From positions 1 through 21,710 of the IMG/VR virus record IMGVR_UViG_3300027896_000257: a DNA stretch of 21,710 nt; one strand, 5' to 3'. The position numbers and the translations under genes were made by a program. This DNA is from a virus. Of the stretch, positions 1 to 17,772 are shown one piece after another. The notes beneath the pieces are model-generated. The model did not search any database and had not been told where the DNA came from. It saw only the letters and a program-made list of their open reading frames with translations. The number at the start of each line of letters is the position of its first letter. Within the stretch, counting starts at the first letter, position 1.

Positions 1-451
1 AAGTCAACCCAATTAATCTAAAAACACCGGTGTGGTTGTTTGTGACAGAAATATTTCTTGTCAATTTACAAACAATATCCTGCCCAGCCTTAGTAAAATC
101 AACATGAGAAATTAATAGTGTGCTCGTAGTATGTACTTGTTTAACAAGGGCTATAGCAGGAACAGCAACCACTTCATGTGTAATATTAGTTGAATATGAA
201 GAATTATTATCTTTATAAATATCATAAGATAAATCTAACTTAATATTTCCAGAATAAGCTGTAGTCATGTCATAAATTAATGTGAAAATAATATTTTTAG
301 TTAGAGAAAAAGTTTTTGGAAAATTAAATTGAAAATAACAGCTGGTAGAAACATCAGGATCAAAACCTAAAGCACATGTAACGTCATCTACTAATATATT
401 GTAAACCATATCAGTATCATCACTGTCAAAAAACTCAATCTGATATGACAT
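1..451 (-). CDS. Stand-alone tail-fibre C-terminal module, 3' end cut by window
   Basis: The reading frame opens with ATG at 451 (MSYQIEFFDSDD...) and stays open for 150 codons to the window edge. The product matches residues 325-475 of the neighbouring 475-aa fibre-like protein almost end to end, with roughly half or more of the positions identical. Shared blocks include QIEFFDSD, GFDPDV, SCYFQFN, IYDMTTAY, IVCKLTR and VTNNHTG. By that alignment only a few codons are missing. The start coincides with the beginning of the shared module, so this gene is the isolated C-terminal domain without the preceding beta-rich shaft. No catalytic motif is visible. It could be a second receptor-binding tip, a hetero-trimerisation partner or an assembly factor for the fibre; the sequence does not decide. 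It is 13 nt downstream of the fibre gene and probably cotranscribed. Confidence 0.75.
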   Translation of the reverse strand, partial: MSYQIEFFDSDDTDMVYNILVDDVTCALGFDPDVSTSCYFQFNFPKTFSLTKNIIFTLIYDMTTAYSGNIKLDLSYDIYKDNNSSYSTNITHEVVAVPAIALVKQVHTTSTLLISHVDFTKAGQDIVCKLTRNISVTNNHTGVFRLIGLT

Positions 452-2938: not shown

Positions 2939-3307
2939 TTAATATTCTTCATCTTCAAATTCAGATTCTTCAGATTCACCTTCTGCATATTCTGGTATTG
3001 TTATTGTCTCCTCATATTCAAAATCTTGAAATGAAAGAAGACCTTTTTTAACTAATTCTTCACAAATATTTTTAGCAATATCATTTCTTGGGGTTATTTC
3101 AATCCAATGTGTGTCTGCATGAATATTAAGAGGACAACTCAAAAGTGCTTCAGAAATTTCTTTTAAAGTTTCAGATGCTGACCAAAGATTTTTAGCATAT
3201 TCTATACAAGCTTTAGAAAAATTATTATTATTTGCATCAAGTTCTCTACGAAAATCGTCCCCTCTTTTATAAAGAAGTAAAACAGGAGTGTACACTCTTT
3301 CAATCAT
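2939..3307 (-). CDS. Small acidic-tailed protein coupled to the endonuclease-methyltransferase genes
   Basis: 122 residues, family not recognised. The start ATG overlaps the stop of the upstream methyltransferase fusion in an ATGA arrangement (3304-3307), indicating translational coupling. Residues 1-95 look like a compact alpha/beta domain (MIERVYTPVLLLYKRG, then a helical stretch, then HADTHWIEITPRNDIAKNI). The last ~25 residues are almost all acidic or polar (EGESEESEFEDEEY). An acidic tail next to DNA-binding enzymes may indicate a DNA mimic, inhibitor or specificity partner, but that is inference only. No catalytic motif, transmembrane segment or signal peptide is visible. Confidence 0.6.
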   Translation of the reverse strand: MIERVYTPVLLLYKRGDDFRRELDANNNNFSKACIEYAKNLWSASETLKEISEALLSCPLNIHADTHWIEITPRNDIAKNICEELVKKGLLSFQDFEYEETITIPEYAEGESEESEFEDEEY

Positions 3308-5658
3308 AAATTAATCCTTTTCTTAAATATAAATATAGGTTCAGATTTATATCCTCCCCCAACTGAAGATAAAACCATATCATATTTTTTAATTAAATCA
3401 TATTTTTCAGAAGCTAAAATTAAAAAGTCATCAACTAAATTAGGATATGATTGAACGTTATTAATGTTTATAATTAAGTATCCTGAGTCTTTAATTGAAA
3501 TATAACAATTATCCAAGGTAGCCTTTAAAAAACCATTTAACCATAGTTCTTTAGTTGGAAACTTTATATAACTCTGAGTTTCCTCTAAACTATAATGTTC
3601 AGTATTAAAATAGGGAGGCGACGTGAAACAAAGATCTACTTTTTCTTTTGAAATAAAGGTCTCACTACCACATTTATGTAATTCAATTTCTTTATTTAAG
3701 TATCCAAAATCTTCTTTTATTTTTTCTAAGCCACTAAATGTTTCAGAACTTGGGTCTAATCCTATATATTTTTTTAATTTTTTAGAGGCTAATGCTCCTA
3801 AAAGGCGACCCCCAAATCCGGCAGACATGTCTAAGGCTACACCACCATCAGGCAAAAAAGAATCGTAGATATATTTAGCTACTGTAGGTCTAAAATTAGA
3901 AACACCCTGTGACCCTGAAAATGTCTTAAGAGCTTCTCTAATTCTAGAATTTGTTATTTTGGCCCTCTTTTTTAATCTTTTTGTCAAACATTTTTTAAAT
4001 AGTTGATCCTCATTAAATAACTCTAGGGGGGATCTTTTATAATTACACCTTATATTAAAGGCGTGAGGAAAATAACACCAAGCAAGATCTAAACCGTGCA
4101 TGACCTGTTTTAGAGAGCCTTCTTTTAAAAAATTAGAATAATTAAATTCTTTTACTTTGTTAAAAGAACATATTTTTTCTTCAGCATTTAAATTAAAATA
4201 AGGAAAACCTTTAATTCTGTAGTAGTTAAAAACTTTATTTATTAACCTATCTTTTTCAATATCTGAAAAAGTGTCCCAGCAAGAAAGATCTACATTTAAG
4301 ATAGAAAGATCCTTTTCTTCTTCTAACTCAGAAACCTTATCATCTTTAATAAATTTATAATAAAAAATAGGAAGAACATAAGGTTTTATTAAATTTTGAA
4401 ATATTAAAGCATTTTCCTTGGTAATAATAACCCTTCCATCTTTATTAAGATAGGTGTTTATTCCTAATTTATTTTTAAAATAATTTTGAATTAATTTTAA
4501 GTCAGCTTTATTGAAACTTTCAGTACAAAGTTCAAAACCATTAGAATTGTAACTAGTCCCATCATCCATGAACCAAAAAGCCAAACCACGAGCATTTATT
4601 CTTTCAAGAGTATGGGGGTTTACATACTTTAGGGGGTTATAAAATAAATTATAATATTCTTCAAATATCCTGGTAGCTTTTGTTTTGAAACTAACTGATA
4701 TTCTAAATTTTTTATCTCTTTTACAAAAATAGTTTGTTTTTTTGACATCCTCTGAATTAATAAAGTTTTTTAAAATGGAATGCTTATATCTTGAGTATTC
4801 TTCTTGTTTTTGGCCATGATCCTCTTTAAATCGGAAGACTCCATGATGCCTCTCTAGATGACCATCTCCTAGTAATGACCCCAAAAGTAATTGTTCTTGA
4901 ATATCTGTAAACCTGTTTAAAAGTTCTCCTTTATCAGAATATAAGTCCCCCTTATCTAACCTATACCTAATTAAGATAAGCTTAATAGCAGTTTCAGTAG
5001 TTCTGAATAATTTAGCTAACTCCGGAATGCTCTTTTTTTCACTAAGGTAGTATTCTAAAAGAGACCTATTAACAGTCAATCCTGATTCTTTTCTTAGTTG
5101 TACTTCATATTTTTTTAATAAATAATATAGATTAGAAACAGATTTATTTAATTTTTCAGAAATAACCTTAACTGGCAGTCTTTCTACTAAATAATATTTT
5201 TCTAAATCTTCTTTAGCTACAACTTCCCAATTTCTTTTTCCTTTTTCAATATTAAACTTTTCTTTTGCATGTCTCAAACCTGAGATGGACATATCTAAAG
5301 TTTTAACAAATTCCTTATCCAGCACACCTTCTTTTTTAGCTTGCTTATAAGCATCTAAATCAAACTTAATCTTTCTAAAAGATATTTTAAATTCGTGTAG
5401 CTTTTGGGATACAGCTGATCTTGATATCCCTGTCTCCTTGACTACATCTTCTAGCGTTTTGCCAAGATCTGCACACGCTTTAAGATAGTTGGGGGTTAAG
5501 GTGCTATCTATTTTTTCTGCGCTATTTTTTTCTTTGAGGGTAAAAGAGATGTTAAACTCTCTGCATTTTCTTTGAAGAGTGCTCTTTGATATTTTCAATT
5601 GCTTGGCAGCTTCAATCATGGAGAGGTGTTTTAGGGACTCAAGATCTTCTTTTTTCAT
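3304..5658 (-). CDS. Multi-HTH / LAGLIDADG endonuclease / amino-DNA-methyltransferase fusion (copy B)
   Basis: 784 residues. ATG at 5658 is chosen because it overlaps the upstream stop (TGATG) and has GAGGA 11 bases upstream; a TTG at 5667 would sit too close to that site. Residues ~10-235 hold five helix-turn-helix-like modules of 40-50 aa, each with a pattern like AKQLKISKSTLQRKCREFNI. Residues ~250-440 are a LAGLIDADG endonuclease: motif 1 LLLGSLLGDGHL (Asp265) and motif 2 LAFWFMDDG (Asp365/366), both acidic residues present. Residues ~475-784 are a methyltransferase: motif I DMSAGFGG (610-617) for S-adenosylmethionine and motif IV TSPPYF (679-684), the N4-cytosine/N6-adenine class. It could cut and methylate related DNA sites in one polypeptide. 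It is very AT-rich, as is usual for mobile endonuclease genes. It follows paralogous copy A and is coupled to the 122-aa gene. Confidence 0.85.
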   Translation of the reverse strand: MKKEDLESLKHLSMIEAAKQLKISKSTLQRKCREFNISFTLKEKNSAEKIDSTLTPNYLKACADLGKTLEDVVKETGISRSAVSQKLHEFKISFRKIKFDLDAYKQAKKEGVLDKEFVKTLDMSISGLRHAKEKFNIEKGKRNWEVVAKEDLEKYYLVERLPVKVISEKLNKSVSNLYYLLKKYEVQLRKESGLTVNRSLLEYYLSEKKSIPELAKLFRTTETAIKLILIRYRLDKGDLYSDKGELLNRFTDIQEQLLLGSLLGDGHLERHHGVFRFKEDHGQKQEEYSRYKHSILKNFINSEDVKKTNYFCKRDKKFRISVSFKTKATRIFEEYYNLFYNPLKYVNPHTLERINARGLAFWFMDDGTSYNSNGFELCTESFNKADLKLIQNYFKNKLGINTYLNKDGRVIITKENALIFQNLIKPYVLPIFYYKFIKDDKVSELEEEKDLSILNVDLSCWDTFSDIEKDRLINKVFNYYRIKGFPYFNLNAEEKICSFNKVKEFNYSNFLKEGSLKQVMHGLDLAWCYFPHAFNIRCNYKRSPLELFNEDQLFKKCLTKRLKKRAKITNSRIREALKTFSGSQGVSNFRPTVAKYIYDSFLPDGGVALDMSAGFGGRLLGALASKKLKKYIGLDPSSETFSGLEKIKEDFGYLNKEIELHKCGSETFISKEKVDLCFTSPPYFNTEHYSLEETQSYIKFPTKELWLNGFLKATLDNCYISIKDSGYLIININNVQSYPNLVDDFLILASEKYDLIKKYDMVLSSVGGGYKSEPIFIFKKRINL

Positions 5659-8138
5659 CAGCAACAATCCTCACTAAAATTGGAATAAAGCCAAGCATTA
5701 AAAATAGACTCATCTTTTTCTAAAAGATATTTAGGTAACTCTTCTTTCAAATGAGCATAAGGTTCATTTTTGTTAAAAAGCCTTTTATACTGTGTTGCAG
5801 GTATTCCTTCTATTTTTTCTAATTCATAAAAACTTAAAAACTTTCCATGAGTTAGACATATTTTTCGATAATTTATCATTTTTTCTATAGCTGTTTGATA
5901 CTTTAAGTTTATGGGAATTTCTGCTACTTTAAGAAAGTCATTCCATGTACCAAAATATTTTTCAACAGTGGATGTGCTGTAAGGAAAAAGTTCAGGGTGT
6001 TCATTTAAAAAAGCACGATTAGTTTTATAACCTAACTTATAAATTTCTTTTATTTTTTCAACACAACTATTATAATCAAGTTTTAAGAAATTTCTTTTTT
6101 TATTTTTAGAATAAACTGTCTTTAATGCCTCAACATCCTCAATGTTAATAAGATTGTCTGAATCTTTTTGAAAAATTAAAAGCGTCTCATACACAAATTT
6201 ATGAATATTTGAACTTTTATCAAAAACTCTTCCCGTTGGGATTTTATAAAAATCTATTAATCCAAATTTACTATAACAACACTTTAAAATGTCTGAAATC
6301 ATCTTTTTTTCAATGACAAGAGCATAAATTCCCTCGGATTCTAATAGATTATAAAAATTATTTATAGATTTTTGTAAAAAAGAAGTTAACCAAAGGCTAT
6401 AACTAGTATACCTACTTATACTTTGATCATGATTATCTTTTTCATAAATTTCTTTATCAAAATAAGGGGGGCAGGATAAAACTAAACCTACTTTATTAAA
6501 ATAATTTTCAGGTAAATAATCTTCTGAACAATTTTTAACAAAAATTACTTTTTTTTCTGGGGATACCCTACTAGCTAAAGAAATAGAAGAATTAATGTTT
6601 TTTATGTTTGGATCTAAGCAAATTATTTCTTTTACCCCAGAAATAAGACCCCCTAGTAATTTCCCCCCATACCCAGCATCAGGCAAATATAAAATTTTAT
6701 TTTTTCCAAAAGTCTCACAAATAAATTTAGAAACTGTTGGTTTAAAATTAGCTACAGTTTTAAAATTTAAATCCACTCCTGTTCGCATTGATGCTGGGGA
6801 AACCCCGCTGCTATACAAAAATCTATTTCTTATGAGTTTTTTAAGTTCTAAGTCATCTTCCCATAATTCAATAGGACTTTTATTTTTTTCTTTAATCCTA
6901 GCTTCATAAATATGATTCATAAAATTTTTACAAATATTCAAACCCTGTGTTTTAAATTGAAGAGTTTTATTGTTTTCTTCAATAACTACTTTTTTTAATT
7001 CAGATATTTTTTGGTTAAGTTTTTCTTCAGACATTTTTATATAAGGAAAACCATATTTACGATAATAATCAAAAACGTCTTTTTCCCATTTTTGCTTAGC
7101 AGCATCATCCAAAACATTATATTGCCTTGTTTTATATTTATGGATGTCATCGTAGAATCCGTCAAAAGCTCTTACATTATACTCTTTAATTAAATCAGGA
7201 CTTATTTCGTCATAGCACTCTTTTGGTACTTTATAAATCATATCTGGAGTTAAAACTTGTTTAATTATGTCAAACAGTCTTCTTTTATTTTTTATTTTTA
7301 AAAAAGACATTTTAGGCATAGAAGGATATATTATTTTTTCAATATCCAGATTTTCTTTATCATTTATAAAGGATATAAACTCATCTAAATTATTTTTGAA
7401 AGCAGTACAAATTCGAGGTGAATTATCTTTTAATTCGCCATCTCCAAAATACCAATAAGCCAAAATTTCTGAATTCCAATTATTTTTAAGAAATTCTAAT
7501 GGGATTTCTTTAACTCCATCTGGATAATAAATATCCCTTAATTTTTTAAAATAATCAGTTGATGTGGTTTTAAATCCTATCTCATCCCTACCCTTATCAG
7601 GGTTTTTAGTAATACTTATTTTAATTGAAAAGGGTTTTAATTTAGTATAAAGATACTTAGCATATAAATCCTGATTAACTGAATGAGATTCTTTATAAAA
7701 AGCATGTAGAGAACTAGATTGAGCAATATGTCCATCTCCTAGAAGACTGCCAAAAATAATGTTTTTTTGAGAAGGTGTCAATTCTGGAAGATTTTTTATT
7801 CTTTGTACCGTTTTTAATGTTATATCTCTTCGTTTAATTTCATTTTTTATTTTAAGCGTTGAACAAAAAAACAATTTAGAAAGTTTTTCTAATGTATTTG
7901 AATAATATAACTTTTTAAATTCTTCATTTGAGATATCTTCTATGTTTCCATTGTTGTTGGGAAGTTTATCTAAAATTCTTTTAAATTGTGATTTTGTTTT
8001 TATTCCAAAACTTTTTCTTAAATAAGAAATGGCTACATCAGAGCATTTAAATTGTTGAGCAATCTTTTGATCACTTATATTTTGTTCTTCATAAAGTTTT
8101 ATAAGTTCTTCTTTAGAGATACCAGATAATTTAGACAT
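5658..8138 (-). CDS. HTH / LAGLIDADG endonuclease / methyltransferase fusion with C-terminal DNA-binding repeat (copy A)
   Basis: 826 residues, ATG at 8138 with AAAAGGA seven bases upstream. It begins with one or two HTH-like modules (SDQKIAQQFKCSDVAISYL). A LAGLIDADG domain follows at ~120-310, with motif 1 FGSLLGDGHI (Asp135) and motif 2 LAYWYFGDGEL (Asp233). The methyltransferase region (~345-660) has motif I DAGYGGKLLGG (487-497) and motif IV at 554-560 reading LSCPPYF: the first position is Cys where the class normally has Ser, Asn or Asp. Residues ~685-740 (TNRAFLNEHPELFPYSTSTV then KYFGTWNDFLKVA) resemble the DNA-binding repeat found next to many phage homing endonucleases. It is paralogous to copy B but has fewer N-terminal HTH modules and an added C-terminal region. 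It is the first gene of a coupled three-gene unit just downstream of the capsid terminator. Confidence 0.85.
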   Translation of the reverse strand: MSKLSGISKEELIKLYEEQNISDQKIAQQFKCSDVAISYLRKSFGIKTKSQFKRILDKLPNNNGNIEDISNEEFKKLYYSNTLEKLSKLFFCSTLKIKNEIKRRDITLKTVQRIKNLPELTPSQKNIIFGSLLGDGHIAQSSSLHAFYKESHSVNQDLYAKYLYTKLKPFSIKISITKNPDKGRDEIGFKTTSTDYFKKLRDIYYPDGVKEIPLEFLKNNWNSEILAYWYFGDGELKDNSPRICTAFKNNLDEFISFINDKENLDIEKIIYPSMPKMSFLKIKNKRRLFDIIKQVLTPDMIYKVPKECYDEISPDLIKEYNVRAFDGFYDDIHKYKTRQYNVLDDAAKQKWEKDVFDYYRKYGFPYIKMSEEKLNQKISELKKVVIEENNKTLQFKTQGLNICKNFMNHIYEARIKEKNKSPIELWEDDLELKKLIRNRFLYSSGVSPASMRTGVDLNFKTVANFKPTVSKFICETFGKNKILYLPDAGYGGKLLGGLISGVKEIICLDPNIKNINSSISLASRVSPEKKVIFVKNCSEDYLPENYFNKVGLVLSCPPYFDKEIYEKDNHDQSISRYTSYSLWLTSFLQKSINNFYNLLESEGIYALVIEKKMISDILKCCYSKFGLIDFYKIPTGRVFDKSSNIHKFVYETLLIFQKDSDNLINIEDVEALKTVYSKNKKRNFLKLDYNSCVEKIKEIYKLGYKTNRAFLNEHPELFPYSTSTVEKYFGTWNDFLKVAEIPINLKYQTAIEKMINYRKICLTHGKFLSFYELEKIEGIPATQYKRLFNKNEPYAHLKEELPKYLLEKDESIFNAWLYSNFSEDCC

Positions 8139-8147
8139 CTTAGTTCC

Positions 8148-8179
8148 TTTTTTAAGTATATCTAATAATACTTAAAAAA
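8148..8179 (-). promoter_or_regulatory. Hairpin abutting the ribosome binding site of the first endonuclease gene
   Basis: On the minus-strand RNA, TTTTTTAAGTAT (8179-8168) pairs perfectly over 12 bp with ATACTTAAAAAA (8159-8148) around an 8-nt loop. The 3' arm includes the A-run of the AAAAAAGGA ribosome site, and the GG follows immediately, so folding would limit ribosome access. T4-type phage homing endonuclease genes such as I-TevI are known to be translationally silenced by hairpins over their ribosome sites. That this hairpin does the same is inference. Confidence 0.5.
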
Positions 8180-8214
8180 AGTTAATAAAGCAACTAAAAT
8201 ATTAAAAAAATGAT

Positions 8215-8274
8215 GTTTTAACCGCTGACGATCCAAAGGCCTGAACGATAGGGTTTTGTATTTTTGTTAATTTT
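8215..8274 (+). pseudogene. Inverted, broken fragment of a major capsid protein gene 3' region
   Basis: Read on the plus strand, the 20 codons at 8215-8274 give V-L-T-A-D-D-P-K-A-stop-T-I-G-F-C-I-F-V-N-F. The resident capsid protein (codons at 8457-8398, minus strand) has V-L-S-A-D-D-P-K-A-R-T-I-G-F-S-I-F-E-N-L. Fifteen of 20 positions match, with an in-frame TGA where the intact gene has Arg. Of 16 nucleotide differences, 12 fall at third codon positions, so the copy diverged while still coding and came from a related capsid gene rather than from a recent local duplication. An in-frame TAA (8203-8205) just upstream and a further stop inside the terminator region downstream show it is not part of a gene now. 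Confidence 0.8.
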
Positions 8275-8278
8275 ATAC

Positions 8279-8317
8279 AAATAAAAAGGGATACTATTAA
8301 AGTATCCCTTTTTATTT
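8279..8317. terminator. Strong bidirectional rho-independent terminator after the capsid gene
   Basis: A 17-bp perfect stem, AAATAAAAAGGGATACT with its complement, surrounds the loop ATTAA. The GC-containing core GGGATACT is flanked by A-runs on one side and T-runs on the other, so it can act on both strands. It lies 27 bp past the capsid stop codon on the minus strand and separates the head operon from the endonuclease cassette. Confidence 0.85.
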
Positions 8318-8343
8318 AAAATTAATTAAATAATTCTAATTAC

Positions 8344-9222
8344 TTATCGAGCAATTACCATTCTTGAAAGCCCACCAGGATTATGTGCACCTATCCCCAA
8401 ATTTTCAAAAATTGAAAATCCTATGGTTCTTGCTTTGGGATCATCTGCAGATAATACAGTAAGTTCTGTTCTAACGGGTATGCGTCCGAAAAATTCTGCT
8501 TCAGCGCAGACATAGGCATTGCCTACTGGGATTTTTCTTGAAACGATAATTTGAGCACCCCATAGATAGGCCATCAAACCAGTTTTCAATAAAGAAGCTT
8601 GGGTCTCAATGTCGAGAACATCGCGCCCCCACTTACGGATATCTGTGTAATCTTTAGGATTCATGAAAATTCTAGCAACTCTAAGATCGTGTCTTTCAAC
8701 ATCAGCAAAAGCGTCAGCAAAGAAAGAAGCTGTGATAGGAGCAGCAACACTGATATCTGGATTAGAAATTCCATCATCAGCAGCATTTCCAGCTACAGCG
8801 TCCATAATTGCGAATACTCTTCCGTCTTCTTCAGCTTGAATTTCAGCTTTAGCAAGATCTTGTGATCTTTCGATAAGGTCAAAACGTCTTTCTTTCACTT
8901 GTGTTAATGGAATAACTGGGTTAGAACTAATTTCGAATAGTGGGAACATAACCCTTTTAGGCTTTTGAATAGCAAGAATGTTTTCGCCTTCTTCTCCAAT
9001 AACATATGCAGTTGCTTTTACGTCTTTGTCATAAATTGGGAGCGCCCCATCGGGTAACTGCTCGACCAAAAATGCTCTACGTCCTACTGACGTATAGTCT
9101 CTACGGAAACGTAGTGGTTGAATCATTGATGCTGCAAGTTTTTGTCTTCCAGCTGCCGTTTTGATGTATTCGGAAATTACTTTTTCCTTTACTTCATTAC
9201 TGGCGGGTTTAGCATTGTTCAT
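8344..9222 (-). CDS. Major capsid protein (HK97-fold type)
   Basis: 292 residues, ATG at 9222 with GGAGG four bases upstream. The sequence has the familiar pattern of short phage capsid proteins of large myoviruses: an N-terminal helical arm (SEYIKTAAGRQKLAASM), then the segment RRAFLVEQLPDGALPIYDKD, the stretch EISSNPVIPLTQVKERRFDL, a spine-helix-like region with many Ala/Glu (DLAKAEIQAEEDGRVFAIM), and a C-terminal A-domain-like part ending in GLSRMVIAR. No long scaffold-like N-terminal region is present, which fits the separate protease/scaffold gene upstream. It is the last gene of the head operon, preceded by a structured RNA element and followed by a strong terminator. The protein forms the icosahedral head shell. 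The assignment is by recognition of the family pattern and by gene order. Confidence 0.88.
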   Translation of the reverse strand: MNNAKPASNEVKEKVISEYIKTAAGRQKLAASMIQPLRFRRDYTSVGRRAFLVEQLPDGALPIYDKDVKATAYVIGEEGENILAIQKPKRVMFPLFEISSNPVIPLTQVKERRFDLIERSQDLAKAEIQAEEDGRVFAIMDAVAGNAADDGISNPDISVAAPITASFFADAFADVERHDLRVARIFMNPKDYTDIRKWGRDVLDIETQASLLKTGLMAYLWGAQIIVSRKIPVGNAYVCAEAEFFGRIPVRTELTVLSADDPKARTIGFSIFENLGIGAHNPGGLSRMVIAR

Positions 9223-10016: not shown

Positions 10017-11108
10017 CTATTCTTTCATCCACAAATCAGAAAGTTTTTCAATTTCGCTAAATTCTCTAGAAGCAGTTACATTTTTAAGAGATTGGATTTT
10101 AGCTTCTTTCTTTTCTTCTTCTTTTTCTTCTTCTTTTTCAGCTTTAAACAATTGAGCTAAAACAGCAATGTCTTCTTGAGAAGCCATTACGTCACCAATT
10201 TCGTCAAAAGAAACATCAAGAGAAGCTTCTTTTTCTTCAACTTTTTCTTCTTCTTTCTTTTCTTCTTTAGTAGCTTCTTTCTTTTCTTCTTTTACTTCTT
10301 CCTTAACTTCTTCTTTCTTTTCTTCAACTTTAGGAGCAGCCGCTTCTTTCTTTTCTTCTTTTACTTCTTCCTTAATTTCTTCTTTCTTTTCTTCTTTAGC
10401 AGCTTCTTTCTTTTCTTCTTTTACTTCTTCCTTAACTTCTTCTTTCTTTTCTTCACATTTTTCAGCAGCTTTTTTTTCTTCTTCTTTCTTTTCTTCTTCT
10501 TTTTCTTCTTCTGCTAAAACTTGTAGAACGGCTTCAACAATAGAAGCAATCTTTTTATCTTCTTCCTCTTCTTCTTCTTTTTCTTCTGCTTTAGGAGCAG
10601 TAGCTTCTTTCTTTTCTTCTTTTACTTCTTCTTTCTTTTCTTCTTTTTCTTCAGCAATAACTTCCATAACAGCATCAACGATTTTAGCAACTCGTGCTTC
10701 GCTAACGATTTCATCAAATTCCCTCATTCTACGAAGAGTAGAAAGAACTGATTTGTTACTCATAGTCATGAAATCAACAGCTTGTCTTTCGATAGCATCT
10801 GCTGGAGCATCTGGAAGAATAGTTTCAGCAAGTTTAAGACATCTCAAAGCTTTTGCTTCAAGTTCTTTTGCTTCAAGAACCATCGATGCATAAGTATTAG
10901 CACCTTTAGTTTTCATTTTTGCATGGCCAGTATCTTCACGGCCTTTAGCATTTTCTTCATCCCATGGGTGATCCATGTTTACGCCTTCAGCCCATGATTC
11001 TGGATTACCAGTTTCGTATTTTGATACGTCTGGGTTCTTGTGTGGGGCATCCATAGTTGTTGGGCAATCATTTAGGCCCATAGCATTTTTAGTCAATCTT
11101 GTTCTCAT
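10017..11108 (-). CDS. Head-module protein with long Lys/Glu repeat tract
   Basis: 363 residues, ATG at 11108 with AGGAGG five bases upstream. Residues ~1-65 are polar and Pro/Asp-rich (MGLNDCPTTMDAPHKNPDVS), ~70-155 are helical (SMVLEAKELEAKALRCLKLA), and ~155-305 are an extreme Lys/Glu tract with the unit EEKKEEVKEEVKEEKKEA, broken by two related hydrophobic helices (KIVDAVMEVIAEE and SIVEAVLQVLAEE). The last ~60 residues return to ordinary composition and end in SEIEKLSDLWMKE. The charged tract should form a long single alpha-helix or coiled coil. Its position between the prohead protease and the decoration/capsid genes fits an internal head-core or scaffold protein, perhaps processed by the protease, but no family is recognised. 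Confidence 0.7.
   Translation of the reverse strand: MRTRLTKNAMGLNDCPTTMDAPHKNPDVSKYETGNPESWAEGVNMDHPWDEENAKGREDTGHAKMKTKGANTYASMVLEAKELEAKALRCLKLAETILPDAPADAIERQAVDFMTMSNKSVLSTLRRMREFDEIVSEARVAKIVDAVMEVIAEEKEEKKEEVKEEKKEATAPKAEEKEEEEEEDKKIASIVEAVLQVLAEEEKEEEKKEEEKKAAEKCEEKKEEVKEEVKEEKKEAAKEEKKEEIKEEVKEEKKEAAAPKVEEKKEEVKEEVKEEKKEATKEEKKEEEKVEEKEASLDVSFDEIGDVMASQEDIAVLAQLFKAEKEEEKEEEKKEAKIQSLKNVTASREFSEIEKLSDLWMKE
10273..10454 (-). repeat. Three tandem copies of a 53-nt coding repeat
   Basis: Near-identical 53-nt cores start at 10273, 10342 and 10402, joined by 16-nt and 7-nt linkers; a shorter related copy starts at 10603. Each core encodes EEKKEEVKEEVKEEKKEA. Copy 2 differs by one base (ACTTC to ATTTC). 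Such near-identity at the DNA level indicates recent expansion or gene conversion within the coding tract, so length variation between relatives is expected. Confidence 0.85.
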
Positions 11109-16302: not shown

Positions 16303-17772
16303 TTATATATATTTTCTTTTTATATTTAAAAAACTGGCTTTTATTGAAATTGAACACCAAGAACGATTTGGTAGTTTTTCTAAAAGATATTCTTTTGTAC
16401 TATCTGCATAAAGTTCTTCTAAAATAGTTAATTCTTTTTCATTCCAGCGTTCTATTTTTTTTATATTTAATTTATTTGCTTTACCGGAGATAGCTCGCCA
16501 TGTTTTATTTTTTATTTTTTCTAAAAGATATTCTTTACTTTCAACTGGATACATCTTTTTTAATAGCTCTTTATCCTCTTCTGACCATAGATAATCCTGT
16601 TTTTCTCTAACTAATCTTAAAAAAGACATTCTATTCTTAATTGAATAATTTGTTCTATTAAGTAATATTAAATTTATATTTTTGTTATTATAATTTTCTT
16701 TTAGTTTTAAATCTTCTTCTAAAGTCCAGGGTAAGTTTTTCTTTTTAACATTTAAATCATTAAAAATTTCTGAAATCTTATAATTACCATAAACTCTTTT
16801 TAAAAGAGTTGGAGTTCTTGGATAAAAGTTTTTAAATTCTACAATATTAGGATATTTTTTATATATCTCTACAAAAGATAAAAATTTATTTTTTAATCTT
16901 TCTTTATCTATTTTTTTTAATTGTTCTTGATTTATAACTTTTATAGAATTAACTGATCCATAAATCCGAATTATTAGCTTATTACTAATTCCTATTTTTT
17001 TACAGAAGTCAGATACTGATATTCTTGTGTCACTATCTTCATCTTCATAGAATTTTAAAAATTTATCATTAATTTCTTTTTTAGTTAAGGGATAAAAGTT
17101 ACTATCCAACACAATTTTATTTCCGAAAAGTTTCATTAACTTATTATAAAATTTCTCATTTACATATATTATATTTTTATCTGGATACTGGTTTTTAAAT
17201 CTTAAGAATTTATCATTTCGTTCATATCCTTTAATCTCGTAATACTTATCTTTACTTTTTATATAAAAATCAGGTGTATAGGTGTCTTCTTCATTTAATT
17301 TAAAAGTTTCTTTTTCATAGTCATATGGTAATTTAAGATAATTTAAAATCCTTGCAAAATTTGCTTCCCAAGAAGATCTTACTGAATGACCTAGATCTAC
17401 ACGAAAACCAGCTTTACTGTGTGTGGCGGGCTTTCCATACATAGGATTATTTTTTCCTTTTGATTTACCATTTTTAATTTGAGTTAATCTTCCTTTTTCC
17501 ATAGCCGCTTTAATTTTAGGGTTTTCTTTTGTTAAACCCTTATTCCATCGGATACAAGATTTTCTATTTTTTATAGATTCTTTAAACTTTTCAGAAACTA
17601 TATGACTTTCAGAAAGTCCTCTTAAGGGGATGTTATTTTTTAATAATCTAAGACTTATTGCTTTACTAGAAACTCCTAAAAAAATGGCTATATCTTTTAA
17701 ACAACTACCTTTAGAATACATTTCTTTAATTACATTAATATCTAAATTAAATCTTAACTTTTGAACACTCAT
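16303..17772 (-). CDS. Free-standing PD-(D/E)XK homing endonuclease with NUMOD3 and Myb/SANT-like repeats
   Basis: 489 residues, ATG at 17772 with only a weak ribosome site. An N-terminal HTH (~20-45) is followed by a NUMOD3-type motif (KGKNNPMYGKPA, ~105-117). A nuclease core has Glu136 (SSWEANFARIL), Asp168 (TPDFYI) and Glu179/Lys181 (YYEIKGY), the PD-(D/E)XK pattern of Vsr-like phage homing enzymes. Residues ~245-345 contain two endonuclease-associated DNA-binding repeats (for example NFYPRTPTLLKRVYGNY). Residues ~345-489 hold three Myb/SANT-like repeats, each opening with W-x-x-E (PWTLEEDLKLKENY, LWSEEDKELLKKMY, RWNEKELTILEELY). It is very AT-rich. It fits between the 233-aa gene and rmlA so tightly that its stop codon overlaps the rmlA ribosome site. 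It probably cuts an intergenic or adjacent-gene site in relatives that lack it. Confidence 0.8.
   Translation of the reverse strand: MSVQKLRFNLDINVIKEMYSKGSCLKDIAIFLGVSSKAISLRLLKNNIPLRGLSESHIVSEKFKESIKNRKSCIRWNKGLTKENPKIKAAMEKGRLTQIKNGKSKGKNNPMYGKPATHSKAGFRVDLGHSVRSSWEANFARILNYLKLPYDYEKETFKLNEEDTYTPDFYIKSKDKYYEIKGYERNDKFLRFKNQYPDKNIIYVNEKFYNKLMKLFGNKIVLDSNFYPLTKKEINDKFLKFYEDEDSDTRISVSDFCKKIGISNKLIIRIYGSVNSIKVINQEQLKKIDKERLKNKFLSFVEIYKKYPNIVEFKNFYPRTPTLLKRVYGNYKISEIFNDLNVKKKNLPWTLEEDLKLKENYNNKNINLILLNRTNYSIKNRMSFLRLVREKQDYLWSEEDKELLKKMYPVESKEYLLEKIKNKTWRAISGKANKLNIKKIERWNEKELTILEELYADSTKEYLLEKLPNRSWCSISIKASFLNIKRKYI

What the first reader, a model, noticed from the sequence alone, without database searches (positions are those of the whole stretch)
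8215..8274. Inverted capsid-gene scar with synonymous divergence beside the endonuclease cassette
Twenty plus-strand codons match the resident capsid protein at 15 of 20 positions but carry a stop at one. Twelve of 16 nucleotide differences are third-position changes, so this fragment evolved under coding constraint in another phage before being left here. It lies between the capsid terminator and the endonuclease genes, in the opposite orientation to the resident gene. This suggests the cassette arrived by recombination at a related capsid locus, or that the capsid 3' region is or was the homing target. Mobile genes that carry a piece of their target gene are known in fungal mitochondria (displaced atp6 C-termini); a phage capsid version would be new to me.
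Basis: partly seen in the sequence, partly recalled or inferred. Interest (0 to 1): 0.7.

Follow-up and report, generated by a model that had tools for sequence, protein, structure and literature searches.

The report
Capsid-gene relic beside homing endonucleases
A 60-base, backwards-facing remnant of a second major capsid gene lies between this giant phage's capsid gene and two homing-endonuclease genes, and several related phages carry similar capsid remnants at the same spot, so selfish endonuclease genes there seem to break into and carry pieces of the capsid gene.

Summary
Window 8215-8274 (+) reads VLTADDPKA*TIGFCIFVNF, matching codons 256-275 of the resident capsid gene (minus strand) at 15/20 residues and 44/60 bases. 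Twelve of 16 differences are at third positions. The next best 60-mer in the window matches only 31/60.

The window is a fragment of a phage-G-like jumbo phage. In 106 of 191 related loci with enough downstream sequence, a homing-endonuclease-type gene starts within 900 nt of the capsid stop.

Among 211 loci, 8 have a capsid-3'-like stretch just downstream of the capsid (expected about 0.6). Three relatives show displaced capsid C-termini: L038 (after the endonuclease), L216 (fused to a truncated endonuclease, with a second terminator) and L146 (fused to the endonuclease C-terminus). Some fragments match other phages' capsid genes better than their own.

Best reading: the scar is a relic of a foreign capsid copy left by endonuclease cassettes invading the capsid 3' end, as fungal mitochondrial mobile ORFs do. 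Its inversion, its donor and the enzyme's target are unresolved. An operator (I-TevI-like) reading is not excluded. It is a new variant of a known kind.

The parts
8213..8274 (+). Scar: inverted fragment corresponding to capsid codons 256-275, with an internal TGA
   Evidence: 44/60 nt, 15/20 aa, differences 2/2/12 by codon position; own-record tblastn E 4e-4
8344..9222 (-). Resident major capsid gene (292 aa)
   Evidence: PHROG major head protein E 1.7e-53; 40% identical to phage G gp27, 73% to LR745208
8267..8329 (.). Terminator-like hairpin between the capsid gene and the scar
   Evidence: 29-nt arms 8267-8295 / 8301-8329, 83% complementary, 5-nt loop, flanked by A and T runs. The scan did not list it, so its function is inferred by eye
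8139..8212 (-). Leader of endonuclease gene 1, probably with its promoter (TTGCTT, 17 nt, TATTAT by eye)
   Evidence: Read from sequence; not found by the consensus scan
5658..8138 (-). Endonuclease gene 1 (826 aa): HTH + LAGLIDADG_2 + methyltransferase-like region
   Evidence: Pfam PF03161 E 2.7e-17; PHROG LAGLIDADG homing endonuclease and DNA methyltransferase
3304..5667 (-). Endonuclease gene 2 (787 aa): HTH repeats + LAGLIDADG_2 + N6/N4 methylase-like region
   Evidence: Pfam PF03161 E 2e-30; PHROGs
2939..3307 (-). Small gene marking the far edge of the cassette
   Evidence: A homologue starts 133 nt after the capsid stop in endonuclease-free L211, 5037 nt after it in the window

Best explanation
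The scar is a dead relic of a capsid-gene copy from another phage lineage, left by homing-endonuclease cassettes that repeatedly invade the 3' end of the capsid gene in phage-G-like jumbo phages. Proposed steps: (1) an endonuclease cuts a conserved stretch of the capsid 3' coding region in a cassette-free genome (inferred). (2) Repair from a cassette-bearing genome installs the endonuclease, with a complete, differently coded capsid 3' end and terminator in front of it (inferred). (3) Pieces of the invaded or donor capsid copy remain beside the endonuclease gene as non-functional arms and decay (such arms are shown in L038, L216 and L146; weaker ones in L245, L111, L273 and L021). (4) In the window the arm ended up inverted, upstream of the endonuclease pair, presumably through cassette inversion or aberrant end repair (not shown). 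It has no expected function now: 20 codons with a stop.
For: Coding-type divergence of the scar and equal distance to three capsid alleles. Two LAGLIDADG_2 genes adjoin it. 106/191 related loci have an endonuclease-type gene within 900 nt of the capsid stop, and L211 shows the uninterrupted arrangement. Capsid pieces in these spacers are confined to the capsid 3' part and to endonuclease-adjacent loci; 8 of 211 against 0.56 expected. Displaced C-termini: L216 with a second terminator, L038, L146. Fragments of L245, L111 and L273 match other phages' capsids better than their own. Raised synonymous divergence at the capsid 3' end, more so with endonucleases, p 0.04 (suggestive only).
Against: The window fragment is inverted, lies on the 5' side of the endonuclease, and lacks codons 276-292, so it is not itself a displaced C-terminus of the known kind. 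L012, with a related endonuclease pair at the same place, has no detectable scar. No donor capsid was found. Most endonuclease-adjacent loci show no piece. 27 further loci gave no new strong case. Target cleavage is untested.
Confidence: 0.66

Rival explanations
1. Operator or non-cleavable target mimic: the endonuclease binds a degenerate copy of its capsid target next to its own promoter and represses itself, as I-TevI does with a homing-site-like operator.
For: The 5'-side pieces are short (30-60 bp) and lie just upstream of the next endonuclease-type gene in the window, L245, L111, L021 and L273. T4 intron endonucleases have homing-site-like operators upstream of their ORFs (PMC2988022).
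Against: In the window the piece lies upstream of the likely promoter rather than overlapping it (by eye). It does not explain L038, L216 and L146, where pieces sit at the 3' side or inside the endonuclease gene. Most endonuclease-adjacent loci show no piece.
Confidence: 0.13
2. Ordinary illegitimate recombination in phages left a random capsid fragment, unrelated to the endonuclease genes.
For: The window piece is inverted, its boundaries match nothing obvious, and L011 has a similar inverted piece without an adjacent recognised endonuclease.
Against: Pieces come only from the capsid 3' part; windows over codons 253-288 hit 5-6 endonuclease-adjacent loci against 0-1 others. Three displaced C-termini directly join endonuclease genes.
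Confidence: 0.14
3. Tandem or inverted duplication of the resident capsid gene in this lineage, then decay.
For: The resident ties for the best match to the scar.
Against: Decay after duplication should spread over codon positions, yet 12/16 differences are at third positions. The resident is no closer to the scar than L006 and L012 are.
Confidence: 0.05
4. Chance similarity.
For: The spacer is AT-rich and only 60 bases match.
Against: Score 45 against at most 36 in 1000 shuffles; self-match 71 against at most 50 in 2280 controls.
Confidence: 0.02

Closest known systems
Fungal mitochondrial mobile ORFs with C-terminal duplications (Allomyces macrogynus atp6; Glomus sp. atp6, atp9, cox2, nad3; PMC3630166)
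   Same: An endonuclease ORF sits directly after an essential gene, and a second, mostly synonymously divergent copy of that gene's C-terminal coding part is nearby. L216, L038 and L146 have the direct displaced copy.
   Different: Phage major capsid gene, not a mitochondrial gene; several endonuclease types at one locus; endonucleases have own leaders behind a capsid terminator; the window's own copy is inverted and on the 5' side.
Free-standing phage homing endonucleases (T4 seg/mob genes, intronless homing; PMC2988022)
   Same: Stand-alone endonuclease gene beside an essential gene that may be the target; T4 segD lies between capsid gene 23 and gene 24; mobA and mobE split their host genes.
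   Different: LAGLIDADG plus methyltransferase-like proteins instead of GIY-YIG or HNH; capsid-derived pieces next to the endonuclease, which I did not find described for phages.
I-TevI-type operator (homing-site-like site upstream of the endonuclease ORF; PMC2988022)
   Same: A possible target-like sequence upstream of the endonuclease gene.
   Different: The known operators overlap the promoter; here the piece lies upstream of it and is about 60 bp. Binding and target are untested.
Endonuclease-bracketed essential genes in phages (PMC10448857)
   Same: Endonuclease genes concentrate near capsid and other essential genes and mark boundaries of exchange.
   Different: That study treats T5orf172 and HNH types; relics of the neighbouring capsid gene inside the cassette are the new element here.

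Membership tests
Mobile ORF with displaced target C-terminus (Allomyces atp6 type) | Endonuclease ORF directly downstream of the host gene | tested here: met
   Window 5658-8138 after capsid 8344-9222; 106/191 relatives
Mobile ORF with displaced target C-terminus (Allomyces atp6 type) | Native C-terminal copy in direct orientation downstream of the endonuclease ORF | tested here: not met
   Window: copy is inverted, upstream of the endonuclease, and lacks codons 276-292. Relatives L038, L216 and L146 do meet it
Mobile ORF with displaced target C-terminus (Allomyces atp6 type) | The C-terminus now fused to the gene is foreign, the displaced one native | tested here: inconclusive
   L216 displaced end is slightly closer to sister phages L217/L219 (0.83) than the resident end (0.77-0.79); L038 gives no signal
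Mobile ORF with displaced target C-terminus (Allomyces atp6 type) | The endonuclease cleaves the cassette-free gene at the insertion point | not testable with these tools
   Needs biochemistry
LAGLIDADG homing endonuclease | LAGLIDADG domain above the curated cut-off | tested here: met
   PF03161 63.6 and 106.4 bits against cut-off 25 for the two window proteins
LAGLIDADG homing endonuclease | Site-specific DNA cleavage and homing | not testable with these tools
   Needs biochemistry and crosses
I-TevI-type autorepression operator | Site overlaps the endonuclease promoter | tested here: inconclusive
   By eye the scar ends upstream of a TTGCTT-17-TATTAT promoter; the consensus scan found no promoter on that strand
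I-TevI-type autorepression operator | Endonuclease binds the site and represses | not testable with these tools
   Needs gel shift and reporter assay
Group I intron in the capsid gene | Intron RNA interrupting the gene | tested here: not met
   Window: no Rfam match, capsid ORF uninterrupted. Relative L012 does have a probable one

The most novel reading that the evidence does not exclude
In phage-G-like jumbo phages, endonuclease cassettes of several unrelated families carry and exchange pieces of the major capsid gene, replacing the C-terminal coding part of the capsid from phage to phage: a phage counterpart of fungal mitochondrial mobile ORFs, with the window's inverted scar as one decayed trace.
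Probability: 0.45. Interest if true: 0.66.

Novelty: new variant of a known kind. Interest (0 to 1): 0.5.

Why it matters
Displaced C-termini next to homing endonucleases were described in fungal mitochondria. Finding the same anatomy at the major capsid gene of giant phages would show that selfish nucleases recode and swap the end of an essential virion gene. It would point to a defined capsid stretch (about codons 255-276) as a natural homing target, and it makes testable whether such enzymes diversify capsids or exclude rival phages.

Tried and rejected
A second putative target around VYVCCE (codons 235-243; L039, L149, L139, L108, L066): most of these matches fall on promoter-like GTATA... 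sequence or the start of the next gene, so I do not count them.

An inverted LSANELKKLG-like peptide in the L012 spacer: too short and too common a helix motif.

The idea of a + strand RNA across the scar: the promoter-like hit at 8172-8200 is no more than shuffles give. No Rfam family in the window.

Searching for the donor: the DNA search with 8190-8290 in phage records gave only matches to the terminator side of the query. VLTADDPKA-coding DNA occurs once in IMG/VR, in an ordinary capsid gene, L306. TIGFCIF-coding DNA gave no capsid relative.

The endonuclease-1 protein search in viral contigs gave one weak locus.

Replication on further capsid loci: 27 testable, none clearly above control level, about one expected.

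Weak matches at endonuclease 3' ends in L017, L018 and L135 are not relied on.

Full report
OBSERVATION. On the plus strand 8215-8274 translates to VLTADDPKA*TIGFCIFVNF and aligns without gaps to codons 256-275 (VLSADDPKARTIGFSIFENL) of the capsid gene at 8344-9222 on the minus strand: 44/60 nt, 15/20 aa, differences 2/2/12 by codon position. The next best 60-mer anywhere in the window is 31/60, and 1000 dinucleotide shuffles of the spacer reach at most 36 against 45. tblastn of the capsid on its own record finds it independently at 8212-8274, E 4e-4. The homology ends abruptly on both sides.

CONTEXT. The record is an IMG/VR virus fragment of 21,710 bases. The capsid protein is 73% identical to that of an unannotated 485-kb phage genome (LR745208.1), 52% to Tunturi_5 and 40% to phage G gp27, so this is a phage-G-like jumbo phage. 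Reading along the minus strand the order is capsid, hairpin terminator (8267-8329), scar, leader, two LAGLIDADG_2 proteins with HTH and methyltransferase-like parts, then a small gene at 2939-3307. In L211 the homologue of that small gene lies only 133 nt after the capsid stop with no endonuclease between; in the window, L012, L003 and L229 it lies 1.3-5.4 kb away behind endonuclease genes. The cassette therefore looks like an insertion between these two genes.

RELATIVES. Capsid searches of IMG/VR gave 303 loci with the capsid, 227 after removal of duplicates. Of 191 with at least 700 nt downstream, 106 have an endonuclease-type gene starting within 900 nt: 86 LAGLIDADG, 16 of a zinc-finger/methylase type, 3 RRXRR (IscB-type domain), 1 other (domains). 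The 3' flank of this capsid gene is a hotspot.

OTHER CAPSID PIECES. Scans of the spacers with profiles of successive parts of the capsid gave an excess mainly for the 3' part. Windows over codons 253-288 hit 5-6 endonuclease-adjacent loci at 5 bits or more, against 0-1 loci without endonuclease and 0-1 in reversed sequence. Comparing each locus's own capsid C-terminus with its own downstream 275 nt, 8 of 211 score at least 40 where 0.56 are expected from 2280 control windows: window 71, L245 48, L021 45, L273 43, L111 42, L039 41, L229 40, L011 40. L039 is probably spurious, and L229 and L011 are marginal; those two are inverted, as in the window. The direct ones (L245, L111, L021, L273) end at about codons 271-275 and lie upstream of the next endonuclease-type gene.

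DISPLACED C-TERMINI. Three relatives carry the other side. L216: after the capsid and its terminator, an endonuclease N-terminus (42 residues, 52-64% identical to homologues) runs in frame into IGCHNPLGLCRVVISR* and a second terminator. The 16 residues equal the resident C-terminus but 11 of 48 bases differ, so the differences are synonymous. L038: just after the endonuclease stop lies a capsid 3' remnant running to a stop codon, 51/57 nt to the resident over the last 19 codons, with the RTIGFSCFE stretch missing from its middle. L146: the endonuclease has an extra tail of about 28 residues, absent from homologues, that contains SLFEGLGIGTYNLKK, compared with capsid SVFENLGIGAYNPKG. L298 may have GIGTFNRPG four bases after the endonuclease stop. 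Left pieces ending near 271-275 and right pieces starting near 271-277 suggest one common break region, but the sample is small, and L038 and the window also reach back to about codon 254-256.

ORIGIN OF THE PIECES. The window scar is 16/60 from its own capsid, from L006 and from L012, while those three differ from each other by only 11-12. It behaves like another lineage's capsid allele, but no better-matching donor was found. In L245 the IGFSCFEN stretch is identical in all 24 bases to L238's capsid, and its own capsid ranks 239 of 303; own ranks for L111 and L273 are 210 and 126. So at least L245's fragment is not a copy of the resident gene. Between nearest-neighbour phages the fraction of identical-residue codons that differ synonymously is 0.26-0.31 along codons 61-235 and 0.44-0.51 along 236-292 where both carry endonucleases. 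Without endonucleases it is 0.26-0.33 rising to 0.36-0.45; the excess with endonucleases has permutation p 0.04. Neighbours were chosen on codons 61-235, which biases other regions upward, and phylogeny was not controlled, so this is suggestive only.

MECHANISM. Shown: a capsid-derived relic next to endonuclease genes, a hotspot, and displaced C-termini in relatives. Inferred: that these enzymes cut the capsid 3' end, that repair installs a complete, differently coded 3' end with the cassette, and that leftover pieces decay. Unknown: why the window piece is inverted and on the 5' side. The main functional rival is an operator derived from the target, for which I-TevI is the precedent (PMC2988022). 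It could explain position and length of the 5' pieces but not L038, L216 and L146.

KNOWN KINDS. Fungal mitochondrial mobile ORFs replace the C-terminus of atp6, atp9, cox2 or nad3 and leave the native one downstream, with mostly synonymous differences (PMC3630166). Phage endonucleases cluster near capsid and other essential genes (PMC10448857) and can split host genes (PMC2988022). I found no report of capsid C-terminal pieces carried by phage endonuclease cassettes, but only an open-access library was searched. I call it a new variant of a known kind. The window by itself does not meet the defining feature (a direct displaced C-terminus downstream of the endonuclease), whereas three relatives do.

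Noticed in passing
L012:8874-10000: In the closest relative with a related endonuclease pair (capsid 90% identical), the capsid gene is interrupted after codon 33 by a 1.1-kb insert with a LAGLIDADG_2 ORF and a sub-threshold group I intron match (29.4 bits, E 3.6e-5).
   Followed up: partly
window 16303-17772 (-): Another probable stand-alone endonuclease within the head genes: N-terminal part matches PHROG Holliday-junction-resolvase/endonuclease families, C-terminal part a D5-like regulator family; a homologue is in L012.
   Followed up: no
L021:2683-4755 (+): An RRXRR-domain (IscB-type) gene directly after a phage capsid gene, with a possible capsid-like stretch in the spacer where an IscB guide RNA might be encoded. 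Whether it is an RNA-guided homing nuclease was not tested.
   Followed up: no
window 206-448 and 684-926: Two copies of a 243-nt stretch, 76% identical, in neighbouring ORFs on the minus strand: a duplicated small domain.
   Followed up: no
window 10017-11108 (-): Long Lys/Glu-rich low-complexity repeat region (EEKKE-type repeats) in a protein encoded two genes upstream of the capsid gene; similar repeats in L012, L034 and L038.
   Followed up: no
L229, 87-138 nt after the capsid stop: What looks like a tRNA-like sequence on the opposite strand between capsid and endonuclease gene (by eye; no tRNA search run).
   Followed up: no
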